A DNA stretch of 64,000 nucleotides from Trichomonas tenax (Eukaryota > Parabasalia > Trichomonadida > Trichomonadidae), in assembly GCA_023091735.1 (NCBI GenBank), contig JALKBU010004900.1:1-64000 (forward strand), given 5' to 3'. Made by a program: the position numbers and the translations under genes. Below, one piece after another: positions 30,245 to 60,026 of this stretch. Position 1 is the first letter of the stretch. Each line of letters starts with the position of its first letter. Below the pieces are notes generated by a model. The model was given only the letters and a program-made list of their open reading frames with translations, was not told the DNA's origin and ran no database searches.

Positions 30245-32262
30245 TTATGCTAGGAAGTCTGTTTCATCGATCTCCTGTTGGCTTCCAGAATCTTCTGCGA
30301 TACTGTTTGCCAGTGTTGAATCATCTATAGTGTGTTCACTCTGTGTTCCACCTTCTTGGGTGATTGAGTTTTGTGATGATACTTCTGATGCGATCGAGTC
30401 TTGTGTTTCACCTTCTTCGGTGAGTTCATTGTGTGTAGACTCCTGTGTTTCGTTCTGCTCAGCGTCTTCTTCGGCTGCTGAGCTGTGTTCTGTGTTGGCT
30501 GGTGCTGTGGCTTCTGCTTCTTGGGCGTTGCCTGATGCATCTTCGTCTTCGTTGGAGGTGCCTTCCTCTTCTTCAATGAATGGTGCTGTGTGGCTTGAAC
30601 CAAAGTTTCTTGAGTGCTGATGATGGAAGATGACAGCTGATGCTTCGACCATAGCTTTGGAGATTCTCTCTGCGACTTTTCTTGCTATCTTCTTTTCTAA
30701 GTGACTTGAAAGCTCTCGAACTGTGTCTGTTGGAACGTGTCCGAGTGATGAGACGACGATTGTGTGGAGTTCAACTTCTCGCTATGATATTCTTGCTGTT
30801 GTTGCGACAAATTCTTGATATTTCAACTTCTTCGGTTCGATTCTCATCTTGAGAGTGTTCCTTGTAACACTTTCTCCATTAACTATTGTTTCGAACATTG
30901 TGTTGTATGGTGCTGTAAATTCAACAATGTGGGCGATTTCCGTGTTCTGATCTATGAAGATGATGTCTGGTTTCAATAGTTGGAGCTCGCCTGGTAGTTA
31001 TTCGATTTCTTCGTTGTCGATCTCTTCTTCATCAATGATCTTCATAGTGCCCATGTCCATTGAACAATTCTCTCTGTAATAGTCTGGGTGGAACTTGTTT
31101 GTGATCTCTCTTCTGAGGATCTCTATGGAAAGATTATGACACCAAGTATACTCTTGAAACTTGTTCGGACGGTATCCGTTGAGAATGTGAGAAAGAGTTC
31201 CCGACTTGTTGTCGTGGAAGGGGCAATTTCCGTCCTCCATGAGACCCTAGGCCCTGCAGTTAGCAGGAGTTTTGAGGATGTTTGCTCTAGCTTTCACAAG
31301 GAAACAGAACAAATTGTCGTTGATGTACTTCCCTCCTTAGTGAGGTTTAGACGAGGAGTCGAGGTTTCCTGTTGTTGAGTGGTCTCTTGCAATTCTCTCG
31401 GGTGATTGTAGTGTCTTCAGCCACTTCTCGGCTAGGATATAATTGATTAAATCTCTCGCTTGGGACACATTCCTGATTGATTTGAACTGGATGTCATTGC
31501 TTTGGATTTGGATCTCATCGTTGAACTCTCTGATCCTTAGGTCTAGATTTTTGCATGCTTTGAAGGTCCTCTCGATCATAGAGTTCATCTTGCGTTCTGG
31601 ATGGCTTTCTGCAATCTCTCCGTCTTCGACTATCCAGCAGAAGAAGCATGCTTCGTCGTTGTTCGTGATGATCTGGACTCATCTGTTCGCTGTCTCCTCT
31701 GCGAGGCTCATTCTTGCAAGTGTTCTGATCTCTGTTGAACTTGATACCCACATTCTGATGAGTTGTGAGCTGGGAAAGATAGTATTTGTCAACCAGGTTT
31801 GGGATTCCGAGTCCTCCATACTTAGCTGGGAGATATCTGAACTCTTTGGGGAGATTCGGGGTGTGAAGTTCTTCGATTACTCTTCCATTAATATACTCGT
31901 CTAACTACTCAATCTCGGTGAGCGAGAACTGGCCGTTGACCATGTGGTAGTCTTGAAGAGGCAGAATGTGTGTTCTGAGCATCTCGAACTTTTGCGAGAT
32001 TGAGAGCTTCGTTCCGAATGCTATGGTGATCCTTGCTTTGACTGTGTTGAAAGTAGTCTGACAACTTCTGATTCTCGCGATGCGGCTGCCTGAGATTGGT
32101 GCACCAAGATACGTAAGACTGTCGTGGATATCCTTGATCGGGATCTGTTTCTAGTGGTTTCTTCCGAACTTCAGTATTCTCTCGATGTCTTGGTTCACGA
32201 TGCCGATTGAGTGGCATTTGTCAATGGCCTGTCCGGAATTTTCCACAAAAGTGACAGAAAAT
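30245..32262 (-). pseudogene. R2/NeSL-type non-LTR retrotransposon, 3' half
   Basis: Broken minus-strand coding of the C-terminal half of a non-LTR retrotransposon, spread over several frames. In order it reads: RT thumb-like sequence (KCHSIGIVNQDIERILKFG, then LTYLGAPISGSRIA); a middle region with KEFRYLPAKYGGLGIPNL; a damaged CCHC zinc finger (NCRA, stop, then CPFHDNKSGTLSHILNG and WCHN); and a restriction-like endonuclease with KPDIIFIDQNTEIAHIVEFT, the PD-(D/E)xK core. It continues VVSSLGHVPTDTVRELSSHL and an acidic Gln/Ser/Glu-rich tail. A C-terminal restriction-like endonuclease defines the early-branching R2/NeSL/CRE-type retrotransposons. The GC content is higher than in the flanks. 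Stops and frameshifts show it is dead. Confidence 0.75.
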
Positions 32263-34163
32263 TTTGGATGCGGTATGAAGGAGTTATATTCAGAGTTTGA
32301 TACTTAGGCAGAGTATCAGAGTTACATAGTGGCATAATACCACAAAGTTTGAAGGAAAAGTATATTTTTTGGTGCAAAAAATCTAATGCTGTGGAACATA
32401 TATTGGAAAATAATTAGTTTTAATGCATGCACTTGTGGAGTTTATGGCACTGATTATGTGTATGTAGTTAATAATTAAATATAAAGATGTTTGTATGCAA
32501 TGCAAAATAATATGCTCAATTTTAAACGATGAAATGTGTGTTTGAGATGTGTATTGATATCTAATTGATATACTTATATGTTATTGAGTATGTGTTATAT
32601 CATTTATAGTGTTTTTTGTGTGATTAATTATGTGATTTCAGAATTTGTGTGTTTGGTAGGTGTGTGATATTCTCGTATGTGTGTAGTTTGATGTGATATG
32701 TGTATGAGCTGTATATAGCTACTCTGTGTGGTGATGTCCAAATCATCAAGTATTTAAAAGTGACAGCTTCATATGCTCATTGTGGTCGCCATTTCTATAC
32801 CATTTGACTTCTTTTGTACTTTGCATATACGACATTATACATTTATATATCTGTGTTGTATGCCTCTATATGTGTGTTAAGGTGTGATTGCATCGATTGC
32901 ACAAAATATAACGCTATAAAGTTGCCCGTGCACAATTGATGTGAATTTCTCAAAGTGACTTCAAAAGTTGTTTGTGAAGACTTTCTGTGCTAGAACCATT
33001 ATATATAGTATGTGTAGATTATAATTCGAATGTGATTTTTAAAAACAATATGTAATGAGATATATTCAAATTTATTATTTCATTATTTTTTACTTCTATA
33101 TATATACATAGTTGTTTGCAATCCTATATATTATCATTACATTAGTTTGGATTGTTTATATTAATTATTTGTGGAGTTGTTTGCTTTTCCTTTTGCAAAA
33201 GGTGACGTGTTTGATGTGGTAAAACAAACGTTTCCCAGAGGTGTGTGTTGTTTGTATTTGATATATGTCAACATATAATATATAGATAGATATGTGTCAA
33301 ATGTGTTGCATATTGTACCATCATTTTTCAATGCTTCAATAAAAAGTTTACACGTTCCAAGTTACGCCGAGTAAAATATGATAAATTTGGCATGTAAAAC
33401 AAGCCTCTTGTGTGTTTTAACTAATATCACTTTAGATATATAATATATATTGTGTTAAATATATTGATAGTGTGTTTGAGTGATTTGAAGCGACTTGAAA
33501 AATATGATAAAATATTTAAAACGGAAATCGGTATTTTTCTGTATTTAGGGGTTTTGGGCTCTATAGAGTCTATTTGTATGTGTTTTATTGTGCTTAAAGA
33601 ATGTTTTAAAAAGCTAAATAATTTCGACTAAAAATAAGCTTTTATTCAAATCTATGTATATAAACCTATAGCTATTTGCCTGCTAAATGTCATATCCCCG
33701 AGCGTGGTCCCGGAAAGCTGAGTTGGCCGAGTTATAAGACGTTTTTGCTAACTTTCTATACACTGAATAGTTTGTGATCAAAATGGTCACAGTAGGCCTT
33801 TGCCCTATAGGATTTTTCCCCACATTATCATTGGTCTCCACTATTGGAATATGTAAATTGAATTAAGTAATTACACCTGAAAATCGGATTTTCTCATATG
33901 TATAGATAGTATAAGATGTGCTATATCATAATCGACTCATTATTTTCTCATATATCTATCATACATCGAGAAATTAAACTACAAAATATTTTCTGACACA
34001 TCACATTTGACATGTAATTTGATGTGATGAAAGCGAATATTGTAAGATTCGAAAATAAGCTATAAAATTGTAATTATAGGGTATGCTATGCATATAGATA
34101 TTATTTATCCTACATAAATCAACTTTGGAGCACACTATTGGAATATTATTTCGATATTCGAGT

Positions 34164-34260
34164 GAAAGTTGTTTATATTGTCCAATACACAGTGTAAATG
34201 TCATTAAAGTCACGCTTGAATGGTCTTTACACTGTGTATTGGACAATAGAAACAACTTTC
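34164..34260. ncRNA. Hairpin 1 of candidate small-RNA cluster
   Basis: Inverted arms 34164-34198 and 34226-34260: 35 bp with a single mismatch, 27-base loop. The arm core reads TCCAATACACAGTGTAAA. The size and loop fit a pre-miRNA-like or hairpin-RNA precursor. Transcription and strand are not known. Confidence 0.5.
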
Positions 34261-34288
34261 AAGAATTCATATGATTAATAACATTCAA

Positions 34289-34382
34289 GATTCTCTGGTT
34301 GTTCTTGTTCAGTGCAGAACTGGGACTAGCTGTTTCGTTTCCATGTCCCAATGCTGCAATGGACAAGAGCAACCAGAGAATC
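34289..34382. ncRNA. Hairpin 2 of candidate small-RNA cluster
   Basis: Arms 34289-34326 and 34345-34382: 38 positions with 33 Watson-Crick pairs, two G-U wobbles and three mismatches; 18-base loop. The mismatched but paired pattern, including wobbles on the plus-strand transcript, is typical of evolved pre-miRNA hairpins rather than fresh inverted duplications. Confidence 0.5.
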
Positions 34383-34389
34383 TCGAAAC

Positions 34390-34501
34390 GCACTTCAAAA
34401 CGTTGTATTTCATGCTATAATTACAGTGATAATGCCACACAGCAGTTGCAGTGGTGCATTGTCACTGTGATTATAGCATGAAATACAACGTTTTGAAGTG
34501 C
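34390..34501. ncRNA. Hairpin 3 of candidate small-RNA cluster
   Basis: Arms 34390-34429 and 34462-34501: 40 positions with one mismatch, which would be a G-U wobble on the plus-strand transcript; 32-base loop with further GCCAC/GTGGTGC pairing. It begins only 7 bases after hairpin 2. Confidence 0.5.
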
Positions 34502-34560
34502 ATTAAAATATCTGATTGAAATGTTGTTTTTCCTAGTATGAGTGAATTTCAAAATGTCGT

Positions 34561-34661
34561 CAATATCTTTGTTATCTAGTCATCTTCACGGTGCTGAAGC
34601 CACAAAGCAATATGTTGTGTGACTTCAGCACCGTGAAGATGACTAGATAACAAAGATATTG
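34561..34661. ncRNA. Hairpin 4 of candidate small-RNA cluster
   Basis: Arms 34561-34599 and 34623-34661: a perfect 39-bp stem, extended after one mismatch by CAC/GTG; loop of about 23 bases. The sequence is unrelated to the other three hairpins. Confidence 0.5.
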
Positions 34662-34943
34662 CAAACGAAGATTAATATTTATATGTTTATAAAGCTAATT
34701 GCATTAAAATCATAATATACAACGTATTGGAGTCATTATTATGTTAAAATATAGAGAATTTGATATTTTTGACAGATTGACGTGTAAAAGATAATAAATG
34801 ACATGTAAAATATTTTTTGGACAAAATTTATGATTAAAGTTTGAAAAATATTTTTATTGTATATTCATATTCTAATCATGTGTTAAATGCTAATAAACTT
34901 ATAAAAAGTACACATTAAGCGAGATAAATATAATTAAAATAAA

Positions 34944-35027
34944 ATGTCGATATTATGGTTAGTTATTGTAGGCTTATATTCAACAGCGTATGTGGTAATA
35001 TATATTATCATCATAATTCGAATATAA
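34944..35027 (+). CDS. Possible 27-residue membrane micropeptide
   Basis: A short ATG frame preceded by AATTAAAATAAA, like the leaders of the 7160 and 9101 genes. It encodes MSILWLVIVGLYSTAYVVIY followed by an Ile-rich end and an Arg, that is one membrane helix. Random AT-rich DNA can give such frames, so confidence is low. Confidence 0.15.
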   Translation: MSILWLVIVGLYSTAYVVIYIIIIIRI

Positions 35028-35234
35028 CAATCAGAAGTGCCTGAATATGCAAAAGAAGGAAAAAGTGAAAAAAGTGACCATTTTTAAGTTCAAACACATA
35101 TTGTTACACATATAATATACATTCCAAATACCACATATTACATTTCTGAGCCATTTCAATATTTGATAAAGCAAATTGTCGGGATGCAATAGCATTATAA
35201 ATATGTTTGTATTTTATTGTAAACTATACAATAA

Positions 35235-35522
35235 TCTGATCAATTACTTCCATTCTTAGCAGAGATCTTCATCAATGAATCACGTATCTTTGCTAGCTTT
35301 CAAATTGAACTAAAGTTAAGATCATTGGCCTATAATCCTAGTTCAATTATGCTAGGATTAGAAATACTAAAAGAAACCATTGACATCGCTTATAAAACAA
35401 GCGATGTTATGATGAAGACTATTATCGATCTTCATTTACCAACGGCTGTTGAGATACAAATCATGAAGGAAATTACAGAATTTATTTCCACACATGCTCC
35501 AGATGAGGTAGTAGAAATGTAG
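35235..35522 (+). pseudogene. 5'-truncated gene fragment, unknown family
   Basis: Ninety-five codons are open from a stop at 35232 to a TAG stop at 35520-35522. The protein-like composition is unlike the surrounding DNA (for example LAEIFINESRIFASFQIELK, then IMLGLEILKETIDIAYKTSD). There is no ATG in the first 38 codons. The sequence looks like the helical C-terminal end of a longer protein that was captured or left behind. Short inverted repeats (ACATCGCTT/AAGCGATGT) inside it are probably coincidental. Confidence 0.35.
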
Positions 35523-35849
35523 AAGGAAAAATGAAGGAAATTAAACTTACTTATAAATTGGAATAAATAATTTTACTTGTCAAATTTTTATTGTTTGCAT
35601 GACTTTTTGACATGTAAACTTTTCACTTTTTCTAGAAAGGTAAATGACTCATTTACAGATTTAGAACAAAATGTACGTTATAGTAACAAGCTTTTTACGT
35701 TATATTCGTGTTAAAAACTCTATGTCATGTAAAGTTTACACGACAGTTTTGTAAAATGAAAAATAGAGAAATTTAGATAAACTCGAGTTTTTAAATAAGG
35801 TTATCATCTGGATATACATGAATGTCGATAATATGAGGAAGTTAGTGAT

Positions 35850-38792
35850 GGCATGTGGGGATATAAATCGTGCGTCATGATGTCTTTGAACGTTCCTATG
35901 AAGCCTTTGGCATCGAGAGCCTCGAATATCATCTGGTCCGGGATGGACTCAAACGCATTAGATAGATCTATTATCGTCAAGATTATCTGTTGGCTTGTCC
36001 TCTTGGCGTGATAAATGAGCTCGTTGAGTGTGGCATTGAAATCACTTGGTCCACCTCCGTCTTTAATGAATCCTTTCTAGCAAAGATGGAATATCATCTT
36101 TCTCTAGTTCTCGCGCATGAGGAAGGATGAGATGCAGCTCATGATGATTCTGTAGAAACAGCTTGTTATTCCGATTGGTCTCCAGTTTCCTGGTGAGTCT
36201 GGTGGGAGTTTCTTTGAAAGGAGGATTGTCTTAGATGATTTCCAACTTTCTGGGATATGCTTTGTGTTGATGATAGATTGCATGACTATTTGGATGAGCT
36301 TGACTCCTCTGCTGTTAGCTATCTTGAAGATCGCATTCGAGATCGAGTCCAGCGGCTGATGTGCGATTCTTGGATCGGAGAACTTCATCAATGTACTCTT
36401 TCATCAGAACTTCTTTCTTGAATTTTTCATCGAAATCGTCTGTTGGAACTCTTTCTGGGATCGTGAATTTATCGTTTGGGAGTGGTGTGTAGTCTGCTGG
36501 TTCTTATGAGAATGATGCGCCTTTGTGATTGACGAAAATTTCAACTGGAAGTGGGTTCTCAGGTGATGGCTTATCGAAAAGATGATTCGCAACTTTCTTC
36601 GGGTTGTCTTTGAATTCGCTTCTGATAACTTCTTTATCTCTTTTCGTGTTAGTAGAGTGCTTATCGATGACATCGATTAACCATTGGATCTTTGGGCGGA
36701 ATGTATCTTCTTTTTCCTTGACGAGGTTTCTTACAGTCTCTATGTTGAGGTTTAGAAAGATGTCTGAAGTCCATTCTTCATTTTCTAACTTGAACGTCTC
36801 GACTATCTCTGCGCATGTTCTTTCGAACTTGTTCATCATCTTGGATGGGAGTGCGTTTGTGACTTCGTCGGCTGTGGTGGTTTTTAAAGTTTTATTGAAA
36901 CAAGGATGTCATGTGCTCTGCTGAGTAGCGTCTGGACTCTATGTGTTCTGGAGCTGATATGGGCATGATCGATCGCTCTTTGTTCCTCTGCTGTTCTCCT
37001 GTAGCGCTGTCTCTCTTGTGGCATTGCTCTGATTTCAAGCGTTGTTGTTATGAATTCACGAATCTTGATTCCGAGGTATTGTGTGGCAAGATCTAGGAGT
37101 TCTCTGCTGTCTGGGATATCTGGTGTGAATGGAAAGTATTGTAGCGCTGCTGGAATGAGTGTGTAATCGAAGAAGCTTGTGATGTGTGTGCGAAGCTTCT
37201 TGCGATGCTCCTCTGTTAACTTTGGGATTCTGAGGTTTCGGTCTTCATCTGCTGCGTGTTGGCTGCATTTCTCTCTGAGATACTCTGACTCTGGCTCTCA
37301 GCTTTCCGTTGATTGGATAGAGTATGACTTCTTCTGGCGTTGGGAGAGGTGTAACTGTCCATTTCTCGTTTTTCTTGATCTCGCCTGCAATCTCGGCTGT
37401 TGACTTCCTTGCTGGATCGTTAAAGTTGTATATGGAGTACATTACGAGTCTTGGAAGACGTTTACCGAGCGCTATGAATTTGAGAATGTCAGGTGCATTT
37501 GCATCATCAGCGATTGCTTGTCTGATGTTGTATGCAAGAGTCATGTGCGACCACTGATTGACTGCATTCTGGGGGTTGTGTGCTTTCGGCTGCTTGAGAG
37601 TGTTGATGATCATTGTGCATAGAATTTCAGATTCTTCTTGTGTGCTGATGTGAAGGATGTTCTCGTTTGTGTTTGCTTCGTGAATTTCGATCATTGAATG
37701 TGCGTTTTCGAATTCTGCCAATGTTGTGTCAGCTTGAATCTTTGCAATGATGTTTCTTCTCGATGTGTTAATCCTTGCTGCTGCTGGAATCGTAAAGAGT
37801 CTATTCATTTGTTGATGACGTTGGTCTTCTGTCATTCCATCTGTTGCGTTGAAGCTTTCTCTGACATCTGTGAATATTCTTGATAGCTGGCTGTTTGGGC
37901 AAAGGCTAAACAATGTTTGAAGTGTGTTTGTTGTTGCTTGGAAATCGGTAATTTCGTTTGATGCACGGTAATCTATTAAGAGTTGTGCAAATTTTCTTGT
38001 GTTCTTGGAACCAATCTTGAGTCTGGTTCATTCTGCTGAGGCTTCTTGAATCTTGAATTCCGTGAGAATCGTATCTTTGAAATATTCTTTTACAAGAGGA
38101 ATTCGTCCGTAAGCGGCCCAGCGAAGAACGTTGGCGATGATGTCTGGGTACTTTGAAAATTTGTCATTGTGATATTCGCGAAAATGCTGTAATTTTGATT
38201 GATAATCTTCACCATGTGCTTCGCAGTTCGGGCAGTTGCAGTACCATTCCGTGCATAGAAGGTCATCGCTGTCTATCGCTGCTCCTTGTGTAACTTTTAG
38301 TCCAAAGTATCGTTCGAGGTATTTATGATCGTAAGCGTGCGTAGTTATAACTTCTGTAGGATCTGCGTTGTTGTGGTTTGTAAGCATGTGCGTTCTGAGT
38401 CTGTCTGTAGTTGTGAAATCGAAATATGAATTGCAGAAAGGGCATTTAATCTTTGTAAGCAACATGTTAGTTCTATCGACTTCTGGAAAACACAATAACG
38501 TCGTAATTGGTAAGTTTCCAATAAATTCTGAGAAGTTTTCTGGAGATTCGAAAACGTTTAGTGCGAGGCTTGGGTTCTGAATAGTATGAATCGAATTGGC
38601 TATCCAAGGCAGCAAGGTATTGATAGTCTTCGAGTCTTTCTCTGCTAGTCATATAAATATCAAATTCGTATCTATATCATTTTGAGTAAAAAGAGGCTCT
38701 TCCCCAAGTCTCTCGAGGTCCCTGCTGGAGGCAATGTCGTCTATGTGTGTTAGAACGGTGTTTGAAAAATTTCTGTTACCGTCCATGTACAT
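35850..38792 (-). pseudogene. R2/NeSL-type non-LTR retrotransposon, 5' half
   Basis: Broken minus-strand coding of the N-terminal half. From the ATG at 38792 it reads MYMDGNRNFSNTVLTHIDDI to an in-frame TGA at 38649-38651. It then continues in the same frame through two C2H2-type fingers (CPFCNSYFD...HMLTNHN and CNCPNCEAH...HFREYH, 38.2-38.5 kb). After frameshifts, a long linker region (37.25-37.91 kb) and a helical segment (36.5-36.84 kb) follow. RT motifs come next: WKSSKTILLSKK and NWRPIGITSCFYRI (about 36.2 kb), then motif A IDLSNAFESIP with the catalytic Asp kept (about 35.97 kb). Coding stops near 35.85 kb at the foreign insertion. N-terminal fingers bind the target DNA in R2-like elements. 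Confidence 0.75.
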
Positions 38793-57808: not shown

Positions 57809-58174
57809 AATACTTCATCAAATCAAACAGGAGGAAGTAAAAAGATTTCAGTAAATAATTTACCTTCACACAATCATTACTTTTCAGGTTCTACATCAAC
57901 GGCAGGGAATCATACTCATTCAATCACTTCGTATTCTTCAAATTTTGATTATAATCATGGTAATTATGAAAGTAATTATATGACTGATGTAATGTCGATA
58001 CTTAATGATATTTTCTGGGACGATAGAAATAAAGCACCTTATAAAAGAAATACTTATACGAATAATGATGGAAATCATACGCATAGTGTTTACGGAAATA
58101 CTGCAAATACTGGTTCAGGTACTGATTACATGCCTCCATACATTACTGTTTTTGCATTCATAAGGGTTGAATAA
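57809..58174 (+). pseudogene. Phage tail-fibre/tail-collar-like C-terminal fragment
   Basis: An open frame without a start near its beginning, ending in TAA at 58172-58174. The sequence has the hallmarks of a tail-fibre tip: SVNNLPSHNHYFSGSTS, NHTHSI, GNHTHSVYGN, TGSGTDYMPPYITVFAFI and a final RVE. Paired HxH motifs plus a PPY-hydrophobic end define tail-collar/short-tail-fibre tips of phages and related fibres in some giant viruses. In those fibres the His pairs often bind metal in a trimer. In a protist genome it probably derives from an integrated virus or Maverick-like element; that source is inference. The DNA is AT-rich like an acquired segment. The 5' part is missing. Confidence 0.6.
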
Positions 58175-58180
58175 AACTGA

Positions 58181-58632
58181 ATAAATTTCTCTCATAAACA
58201 CCAAAAATAATTATTAAAATTTGCAAACCCCTAAACCTTTTCGCTTTCTTTTCCTAGTTAGTTAGTTAGTTTATGAAATCATTAATTCCCTATAGAGGAG
58301 CGTGGGCTCTTTTTAAGAGCTTGATATTTTATAAAGTCATAAGATTTACAATTAATAATAATGTTTGTTTTTGAAATTAATGAAAATTTTAATATTCATA
58401 AATTTCTCTCATAAACACCAAAAATTATTTTTAAAAATTATGAAGTCATAAATTCTATCACTAATGATAAAATAAATTATATCATATATTTAAAATAAAA
58501 AATTAACGCTGATTTTGAAATTAATGAAAATTTTAATTCCATATAGAGGAGCGTGGACTCCTTTTTAAGAGCTTTATTTTTATAAAGTCAGGAGTTTTAC
58601 AATTATTTTTAATGCTGATTTTGAAATTGTCA
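58181..58632. repeat. Two diverged AT-rich repeat units with hairpins
   Basis: ATAAATTTCTCTCATAAACA occurs at 58181 and 58398. ATAGAGGAGCGTGG occurs at 58292 and 58543, each followed by a CTC(C)TTTTTAAGAGCT palindrome able to form a short stem. A TGAAATTAATGAAAATTTTAAT word also repeats. Two units of about 220-250 bp are implied. They follow the tail-fibre-like stop and may be element 3' ends. Confidence 0.6.
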
Positions 58633-58679
58633 TGTAAAATAGTTTTTATCATAAGTTTGCCGCGTAATGTGTCACTTTT

Positions 58680-58726
58680 AGAAATTTGTAGAGCTACGGC
58701 GAAGTCGTAGCTAGTGCGAATTTCTC
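58680..58726. repeat. Imperfect hairpin
   Basis: AGAAATT...AGCTACG and CGTAGCT...AATTTCT pair with a small internal bulge and a 7-base loop (GCGAAGT). It sits just before the mariner fragment. Confidence 0.4.
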
Positions 58727-58739
58727 ATTACTAACTGTA

Positions 58740-59624: not shown

Positions 59625-59887
59625 GGGTATAATAAAGAGTCACGGAAAAGTGATGTGTTTACATGGCAAATGTATTTCATTTTGACATGTAAAATTGGTT
59701 AATTTATAAAGTATACATTTGCTTATAAGTTCAATTAAACTTGTTATAGCATCTGCAAATCTTATTATAGAATCTATCAAGCTTGTTAGAGAGTCTATTA
59801 AGCTTGAAATGACAGACTTTAAATGTCAAAACATATTTATAACTGCCATGTAAACACATCACTTTTTCGTGACTCTTTATTATACCC
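59625..59887. mobile_element. MITE-like element, 44-bp terminal inverted repeats
   Basis: Ends 59625-59668 and 59844-59887 match in inverted orientation at 43 of 44 bases, starting GGGTATAATAAAGAGTCACG and including GTGATGTGTTTACATGGCA. Further inside, TTTTGACAT(G/T)TAAA is also inverted. The 263-bp element is non-coding. No clear target duplication (left TT, right TA). Its inner TGACATGTAAAA is the same word found scattered across the window. Confidence 0.65.
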
Positions 59888-59918
59888 TACAGCGGCATAA
59901 TATAGTGTAATAAAAACA

Positions 59919-60026
59919 TAAACTACATTTTTTAATCTAGGTACTCTACGGGCGTATTCCTCACAATATTGAGGGAGCCCCTTGAAAAAAATTGAGAGGA
60001 GTACCTAGATTAAAAAGTGTAGTTTA
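59919..60026. mobile_element. 104-bp hairpin MITE with TA duplications
   Basis: Ends 59921-59946 and 59999-60024 form a 26-bp inverted repeat with one G-U-type mismatch (left end AACTACATTTTTTAATCTAG). The element is flanked by TA at 59919-59920 and 60025-60026, the Tc1/mariner target signature. It has a 52-base interior. It lies close to the mariner fragment, which could be from its mobilising family. Confidence 0.6.

What the first reader, a model, noticed from the sequence alone, without database searches (positions are those of the whole stretch)
34164..34661. Cluster of four long, unrelated RNA-type hairpins
Within 500 bases there are four successive inverted repeats with 35-40-bp arms and 18-32-base loops (34164-34260, 34289-34382, 34390-34501, 34561-34661). 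Their sequences are unrelated to each other, so this is not a tandem repeat. Hairpins 2 and 3 carry differences that would be G-U wobbles in the plus-strand RNA, and hairpin 2 also has internal mismatches, as expected from selection on RNA structure. The cluster lies in foreign DNA inside a dead retrotransposon. A polycistronic miRNA/hpRNA precursor is the leading idea.
Basis: partly seen in the sequence, partly recalled or inferred. Interest (0 to 1): 0.85.

Follow-up and report, generated by a model that had tools for sequence, protein, structure and literature searches.

The report
Dispersed multi-hairpin repeat of a trichomonad
The four hairpins are real, but they are one copy of a repeat scattered through the genome of an unnamed relative of Trichomonas; the repeat carries ordered sets of long hairpins whose two arms tend to change together, and whether it makes silencing RNA or is a selfish DNA element is not settled.

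Summary
In detail: four hairpins with 43-46-bp arms at 34163-34661 (z about -26). The reading changes. The cluster matches at least 40 places in a 53-Mb parabasalid genome: it is a non-coding dispersed repeat (type A). Ten of 21 A-type sequences examined keep H1-H2-H3-H4 in order; nine of the ten have a fifth hairpin, Hx, lost in the window. At least three more array types exist. B shares the left module, and in five of 13 loci the right one, but has other hairpins; E shows an Hx-like plus H3/H4-like block twice; C is the commonest. The hairpins are not all unrelated: H3, H4 and E2 are detectable paralogues. Arms covary in H1, H2, H3 and Hx, not clearly in H4, B1, B2. The wobble argument for RNA fails: with strand-symmetric pairs, G-U and A-C mismatches are about equal (163:152; 98:116 in C). 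One Argonaute and one tandem-RNase III protein were found, so Dicer processing is possible. Best reading: a mobile multi-hairpin element whose transcript would be a Dicer substrate (0.45). Main rival: palindromes maintained at DNA level (0.3). No RNA data were available and no target was found.

The parts
34163..34261 (+). Hairpin H1 (43-bp arms, 13-base loop)
   Evidence: 14 copies aligned
34284..34387 (+). Hairpin H2 (43-bp arms, 18-base loop)
   Evidence: 16 copies
34390..34501 (+). Hairpin H3 (46-bp arms, 20-base loop); 6 of its 13 outer pairs are unpaired in 12 or more of 20 sequences
   Evidence: 19 copies
34540..34545 (+). Point where other copies have about 60 extra bases carrying most of hairpin Hx; apparent deletion in the window
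34561..34661 (+). Hairpin H4 (44-bp arms, 13-base loop)
   Evidence: 16 copies
34009..34157 (+). Left module directly before the hairpins; present with A- and with B-type arrays
32635..34008 (+). Rest of the left part of the repeat; matches of several copies start near 32635-32644
34662..35239 (+). Right module; many other copies go on past 35239 with shared sequence, where the window copy is interrupted
35240..35649 (.). A second small dispersed repeat lying at that interruption (35305-35649 also in L009 and L019)
35686..35881 (.). About 200-bp high-copy dispersed repeat
35877..38648 (-). Upstream pieces of a broken non-LTR retrotransposon (35877-36199 matches a relative; the rest inferred from open frames)
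30245..32228 (-). Downstream pieces of the same retrotransposon (31740-32228 matches a relative; the rest inferred from open frames)

Best explanation
The cluster is one decaying copy of a mobile, non-coding, multi-hairpin repeat. A copy has a left module, an ordered array of long hairpins and a right module, and no protein gene was found in it. Arrays change by duplication, loss and replacement of hairpins. In the lineages that spread, the two arms of several of the hairpins were kept complementary. Shown here: dispersal, shared order, paralogy of some hairpins, covariation of some, and presence of an Argonaute and a tandem-RNase III protein. Inferred: that it moved as an element, is transcribed through the array, that each hairpin is cut by the Dicer-like enzyme, and that the products load Argonaute, chiefly acting on copies of the element itself. 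How the element moves is not known.
For: The 498 bases match, in whole or part, 40 places on 39 contigs (40 of 55 candidates scored). B: 19 places, whole or part (19 of 19 scored). C: 40 places (40 of 240 scored). E: at least 21 places with E hairpins (40 of 72 scored, some of them A-type places sharing the right module). Ten of 21 A-type sequences carry H1-H4 in order, nine of the ten with Hx. Of 17 loci chosen for the left flank, 13 carry B1, 11 carry B2 and none an A hairpin at 80% coverage; L043 aligns to part of H1. E1-E2-E1b-E4 is an Hx-like plus H3/H4-like block present twice, followed by the same right module. Arms: within-copy mismatch 0.184 against 0.208 between copies, difference 0.025, 95% interval 0.015-0.035, 299 pairs. 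H3: 16 pairs changed on both sides against 8.4 in shuffles, 0 of 500 reach it. Hx: 50 doubly changed cells against 20.7, 0 of 500. H3 to H4: 11 compensatory pairs against 2.1 expected. In each hairpin the loop diverges more than either arm, 0.27-0.40 against 0.15-0.30, in 12 matched copies. Argonaute with PAZ and Piwi, and an 820-aa frame with two RNase III domains.
Against: No G-U excess (163:152:116; 34:21 on subfamily consensus, not decisive), which selection on a single-stranded RNA would be expected to leave. Covariation is unclear or absent in H4, B1 and B2. For Hx two of five covariation measures are reached by 83 and 64 of 500 shuffles. In H4 to E4, H4 to E2 and E1 to E1b compensatory pairs hardly exceed expectation (1 against 0.5, 1 against 0.9, 0 against 0.1). 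Arms are not clearly slower than all non-hairpin parts: the H3-H4 spacer diverges at 0.140 and the left module at 0.165, and a separate set of 12 right-module copies at 0.170 against 0.345. No RNA data. No target: 44 of 44 H3-core matches lie in A-type places. Trichomonas vaginalis is reported to have miRNA at only 0.0046% (PMC7844918, passages).
Confidence: 0.45

Rival explanations
1. The hairpins work or persist as DNA. The repeat is a non-autonomous mobile element whose palindromes matter for copying or integration, or have no role, and arms are kept alike by template switching or gene conversion between them rather than by selection on RNA.
For: Mismatches are strand-symmetric, and both strands fold about equally well. 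In the window the outer 13 pairs of H3 are all Watson-Crick, while 6 of them are unpaired in 12 or more of 20 sequences; L009 shares the 5' arm but has lost the 3' arm. One templated event could give that. Many copies, arms mismatching at 18% on average.
Against: Loops diverging more than arms and a conserved left module are not predicted by arm homogenisation alone. The H3 extension could instead be ancestral. No terminal repeats or target duplications were established for this element, and no transposase was among the families listed near copies.
Confidence: 0.3
2. A polycistronic miRNA or hpRNA gene with a regulatory role for the host.
For: Hairpin lengths suit it; one arm is more conserved than the other in H2 (0.155 against 0.247) and H4 (0.153 against 0.303); Argonaute and Dicer-like proteins exist.
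Against: Tens of dispersed, decaying copies of each array type; no H3-core site outside arrays; of 16 H4-core matches outside the places, 11 lie in E-type places (two of them read), 2 are A remnants on reading and 3 were not read.
Confidence: 0.15
3. A chance cluster of separate palindromic MITEs nested in one place.
For: Each hairpin alone looks like a palindromic MITE, and other small repeats lie next to the array.
Against: The same hairpins in the same order recur in other copies, with shared modules on both sides.
Confidence: 0.04

Closest known systems
Drosophila hpRNA / endo-siRNA loci (listing and abstract starts seen: PMC10292708, PMC10317233)
   Same: Hairpin RNA sources; a Dicer-like and an Argonaute protein are available here too
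   Different: Those are loci that silence selfish genes; here the hairpins sit in a dispersed decaying repeat, no target is known and no RNA is shown
Trichomonas vaginalis ~34-nt piRNA-like small RNAs over repeats (PMC7845603, passages read)
   Same: Parabasalid; PIWI-like Argonautes; small RNAs map to repeats; the 43-46-bp arms here could hold a 34-nt product (my inference)
   Different: No hairpin origin is described in the passages seen; Dicer dependence stated there as open
Trichomonad miRNA candidates (PMC3995805, PMC7844918; passages read)
   Same: Stem-loop precursors reported in trichomonads
   Different: Few (three in T. gallinae) or of very low abundance (T. vaginalis); not described in the passages as ordered arrays in a repeat family
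MITEs (general knowledge, recalled)
   Same: Non-coding, palindromic, dispersed, many copies
   Different: Several different hairpins in fixed order between two modules; no terminal inverted repeats or target duplications shown

Membership tests
microRNA precursor cluster | Precise small RNAs from the arms, with star strand | not testable with these tools
   No RNA reads available
microRNA precursor cluster | Arms conserved relative to the loop | tested here: met
   12 copies: loops 0.27-0.40; arms 0.15-0.25 and 0.30 for the H4 3' arm; but some non-hairpin parts are as conserved as arms
microRNA precursor cluster | Match to a known RNA family | tested here: not met
   0 Rfam matches at gathering score in the window
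microRNA precursor cluster | G-U wobbles tolerated on the RNA strand more than A-C | tested here: not met
   163:152 and 98:116; 34:21
hpRNA / endo-siRNA source | Dicer-like and Argonaute proteins in the genome | tested here: met
hpRNA / endo-siRNA source | Arms complementary to a target elsewhere | tested here: inconclusive
   one core each of H3 and H4 tested; none found, 3 H4 matches not read; other arms not tested
MITE | Each hairpin a separate insertion | tested here: not met
   shared order in 10 of 21 A-type sequences
MITE | Terminal inverted repeats and target-site duplication of the whole element | tested here: inconclusive
   Ends fuzzy; at the retrotransposon junction about 320 bp of host element appear to be missing
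Non-LTR retrotransposon (flanking host element) | Reverse-transcriptase domain | tested here: met
   Relative L052: RVT_1 at 6.3e-13; window pieces only weak, below the cut-off

The most novel reading that the evidence does not exclude
A parabasalid genome carries well over a hundred mobile hairpin cassettes: shared left and right modules with an exchangeable, duplicating set of hairpins between them. Their transcripts feed a minimal one-Dicer, one-Argonaute pathway, and new guide hairpins arise by duplication and arm-to-arm copying.
Probability: 0.25. Interest if true: 0.85.

Novelty: new variant of a known kind. Interest (0 to 1): 0.58.

Why it matters
If transcribed, these arrays would be a natural, high-copy substrate for the barely understood small-RNA pathway of parabasalids, where miRNAs are disputed and the origin of ~34-nt RNAs is open (passages read). 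If not, they are a natural system for how long palindromes stay palindromic over deep divergence. Either way the family gives many copies in which the two can be told apart.

Tried and rejected
G-U excess: a first count on RNAalifold pairs gave 213 G-U to 70 A-C (sums over seven hairpin families). That is an artefact, because alifold itself prefers G-U columns; with Watson-Crick-defined pairs it vanished. I dropped the claim.

Targets: 11 near-identical H4-like sites outside the A places looked like targets, but the two that were read are another array type, E, and the other nine lie in E-type places.

Clean insertion: the junction in the retrotransposon is not a simple insertion. The comparison bridges two contigs by a 61-bp match, so it is tentative.

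C array as a compact element: matches often ran 16-377 of the query, but the flanks also align between copies, so those are not true ends.

Proteins near the arrays: 61 of 119 open frames of 110 aa or more from the loci were scanned. 72 Pfam families matched; of the 25 shown none is a transposase, the rest I did not see.

Weak links between hairpin types: the B2 profile finds H1 at 0.006 (one decoy, at 0.9), H1 finds B2 at 0.034 and H3 at 0.044 (one decoy, at 0.07); left open.

Collections and papers: the H3 core has no exact match in viral contigs. Eight full-text searches on small RNAs, repeats or hairpins in parabasalids, in protists or in general showed no such array in their listings; two more returned no paper. 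Only open-licence papers are held, so this is no proof of absence.

Full report
The organism. The window lies in a 53.4-Mb assembly of 1528 contigs. Its glycyl-tRNA synthetase is closest, among named species, to Histomonas meleagridis (50%), Tritrichomonas musculus (49%) and T. foetus (48%); unnamed proteins reach 64%. I infer an unnamed parabasalid.

The observation. Four hairpins are present at the stated places, far beyond chance on either strand. Counted by position, they have 39 of 43, 37 of 43, 44 of 46 and 43 of 44 Watson-Crick pairs; the 13 others are 6 G-U, 3 A-C and 4 other.

A dispersed family. The 498 bases match, in whole or part, 40 places on 39 contigs; 40 of 55 candidates were scored. 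Copies lie near ordinary host genes: 61 of 119 open frames from the loci were scanned, and the 25 families shown of 72 are host-type, such as ankyrin, kinase and WD40, with no transposase. Beyond the repeat the flanks of copies mostly do not match each other. In the window and the twenty loci, ten of 21 sequences carry H1-H4 in order at 80% coverage, and nine of the ten have an extra hairpin Hx between H3 and H4. The window lost most of Hx: alignments jump at 34540-34545.

Modules with different hairpins. A search with the left part found further copies. Of 17 fetched for that flank, 13 carry a hairpin B1 of about 112 bases, 11 carry B2, and none carries an A hairpin at 80% coverage, though L043 aligns to part of H1. 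They share the left module by selection; five of the 13 B1 loci also match the right module within the short stretches fetched. The B pair matches 19 places, in whole or part, 19 of 19 candidates scored. A third type, C, has at least four hairpins; 40 of 240 candidate places were scored. A fourth, E, has at least 21 places with E hairpins, 40 of 72 candidates scored, some of these being A-type places that share the right module. E reads E1-E2-E1b-E4 and then the right module; E1 and E1b resemble Hx, E4 resembles H4, E2 resembles H3 and H4. So an Hx-like plus H3/H4-like block occurs twice there. A further set D was seen in two loci and not followed.

Paralogy. Profile searches link H3 with H4 (E 9e-4 and 3e-4) and H3 with E2 (1.7e-7); none of 300 palindromic decoys reached E 1 with either profile. 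Links of H1 with B2 and H3 are weak and left open.

Arm coevolution. Over seven A and B hairpin types and 299 pairs, arms of one copy mismatch at 0.184, arms of different copies at 0.208 (difference 0.025, interval 0.015-0.035). The interval excludes zero for H1, H2, H3 and Hx, and includes it for H4, B1 and B2. For H3 (19 copies and E2), all five covariation measures exceed all 500 shuffles and every slid version. For Hx (17 copies, E1 and E1b), three of five do; pairs with a change on both sides (83 of 500 shuffles reach it) and further pair types (64 of 500) do not. Related sequences can beat shuffles without structure, as the tool warns. Between paralogues, compensatory pairs exceed expectation for H3-H4 (11 against 2.1), H3-E2 (8 against 1.4), Hx-E1 (5 against 0.7) and Hx-E1b (3 against 0.9), but hardly for H4-E4 (1 against 0.5), H4-E2 (1 against 0.9) or E1-E1b (0 against 0.1). 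C hairpins point the same way: 0.160 within against 0.193 between, mostly from C4.

RNA or DNA? A first count with RNAalifold pairs showed many more G-U than A-C, but the method favours that. With pairs defined by Watson-Crick consensus, G-U to A-C is 163:152, with 90 pair columns each, and 98:116 in C. On subfamily consensus it is 34:21, which is not decisive. So there is no clear sign that one RNA strand was under selection for folding. On the other side, in 12 matched copies the loop of each hairpin diverges more than its arms: loops 0.27-0.40, arms 0.15-0.25 except the H4 3' arm at 0.30. The left module is at 0.165, the H3-H4 spacer at 0.140, the H1-H2 spacer at 0.251, the farther left at 0.29, the right module at 0.345. 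The last figure depends on the copies: 12 right-module copies aligned on their own gave 0.170, and 29 left-module copies 0.200. The pattern suits an RNA precursor but does not prove one. In the window the outer 13 pairs of H3 are all Watson-Crick, while 6 of them are unpaired in 12 or more of 20 sequences; this could be an arm-to-arm copying event or an ancestral state.

Machinery. One Piwi-domain protein, with PAZ, and one 820-aa frame with two RNase III domains were found; Pfam reported no helicase or PAZ domain in the latter. In T. vaginalis, ~34-nt small RNAs over repeats are reported (PMC7845603, passages), and miRNAs at 0.0046% (PMC7844918, passages). Whether Dicer is involved is stated in the former as open.

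Targets. The H3 core, with up to 3 mismatches, has 44 matches, all in A-type places; the reversed control has 1. The H4 core has 68, control 0; 16 lie outside the places: 11 in E-type places (two were read), 2 A remnants on reading, 3 unread. No target is shown; the other arms were not tested.

Surroundings. The flanks are pieces of a broken non-LTR retrotransposon on the minus strand; a relative has a reverse-transcriptase domain at 6e-13. Between 32228 and 35877 the window appears to lack about 320 bp of that element and holds instead the hairpin repeat and two other small repeats.

Verdict. A real, ordered hairpin array, covarying in part, that belongs to a dispersed modular repeat family. 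What keeps the arms paired is open. I favour a mobile element whose transcript is a Dicer substrate at 0.45, DNA-level maintenance at 0.3, a host miRNA-type gene at 0.15.

Noticed in passing
window 59627-60026: Two further inverted repeats with longer spacers (arms 42 and 28 bp). By eye the second resembles a ~120-bp insertion in the right module of L020, at which the two flanking matches overlap by 6 bp, as a MITE with a target duplication would.
   Followed up: partly
window 35686-35881: A ~200-bp repeat found at many places, the best at about 90% identity, many matches ending at 35881; SINE-like in size.
   Followed up: no
L009, L023, L024 and L068-L079: Array type C, with at least four hairpins and 240 candidate places (40 scored), looks commoner than the A array of the finding.
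   Followed up: partly
L013 2858, L015 1946, L020 2910 (oriented); L011, L014, L016: Left ends of several copies begin with short palindromic motifs of the CACTTTTT/AAAAGTG kind, in L017 repeated; could be promoter or terminus.
   Followed up: no
window 57815-58737 and 1-195: Other stretches of the window recur in fetched loci (L016; L012, L014) at 81-96% identity.
   Followed up: no
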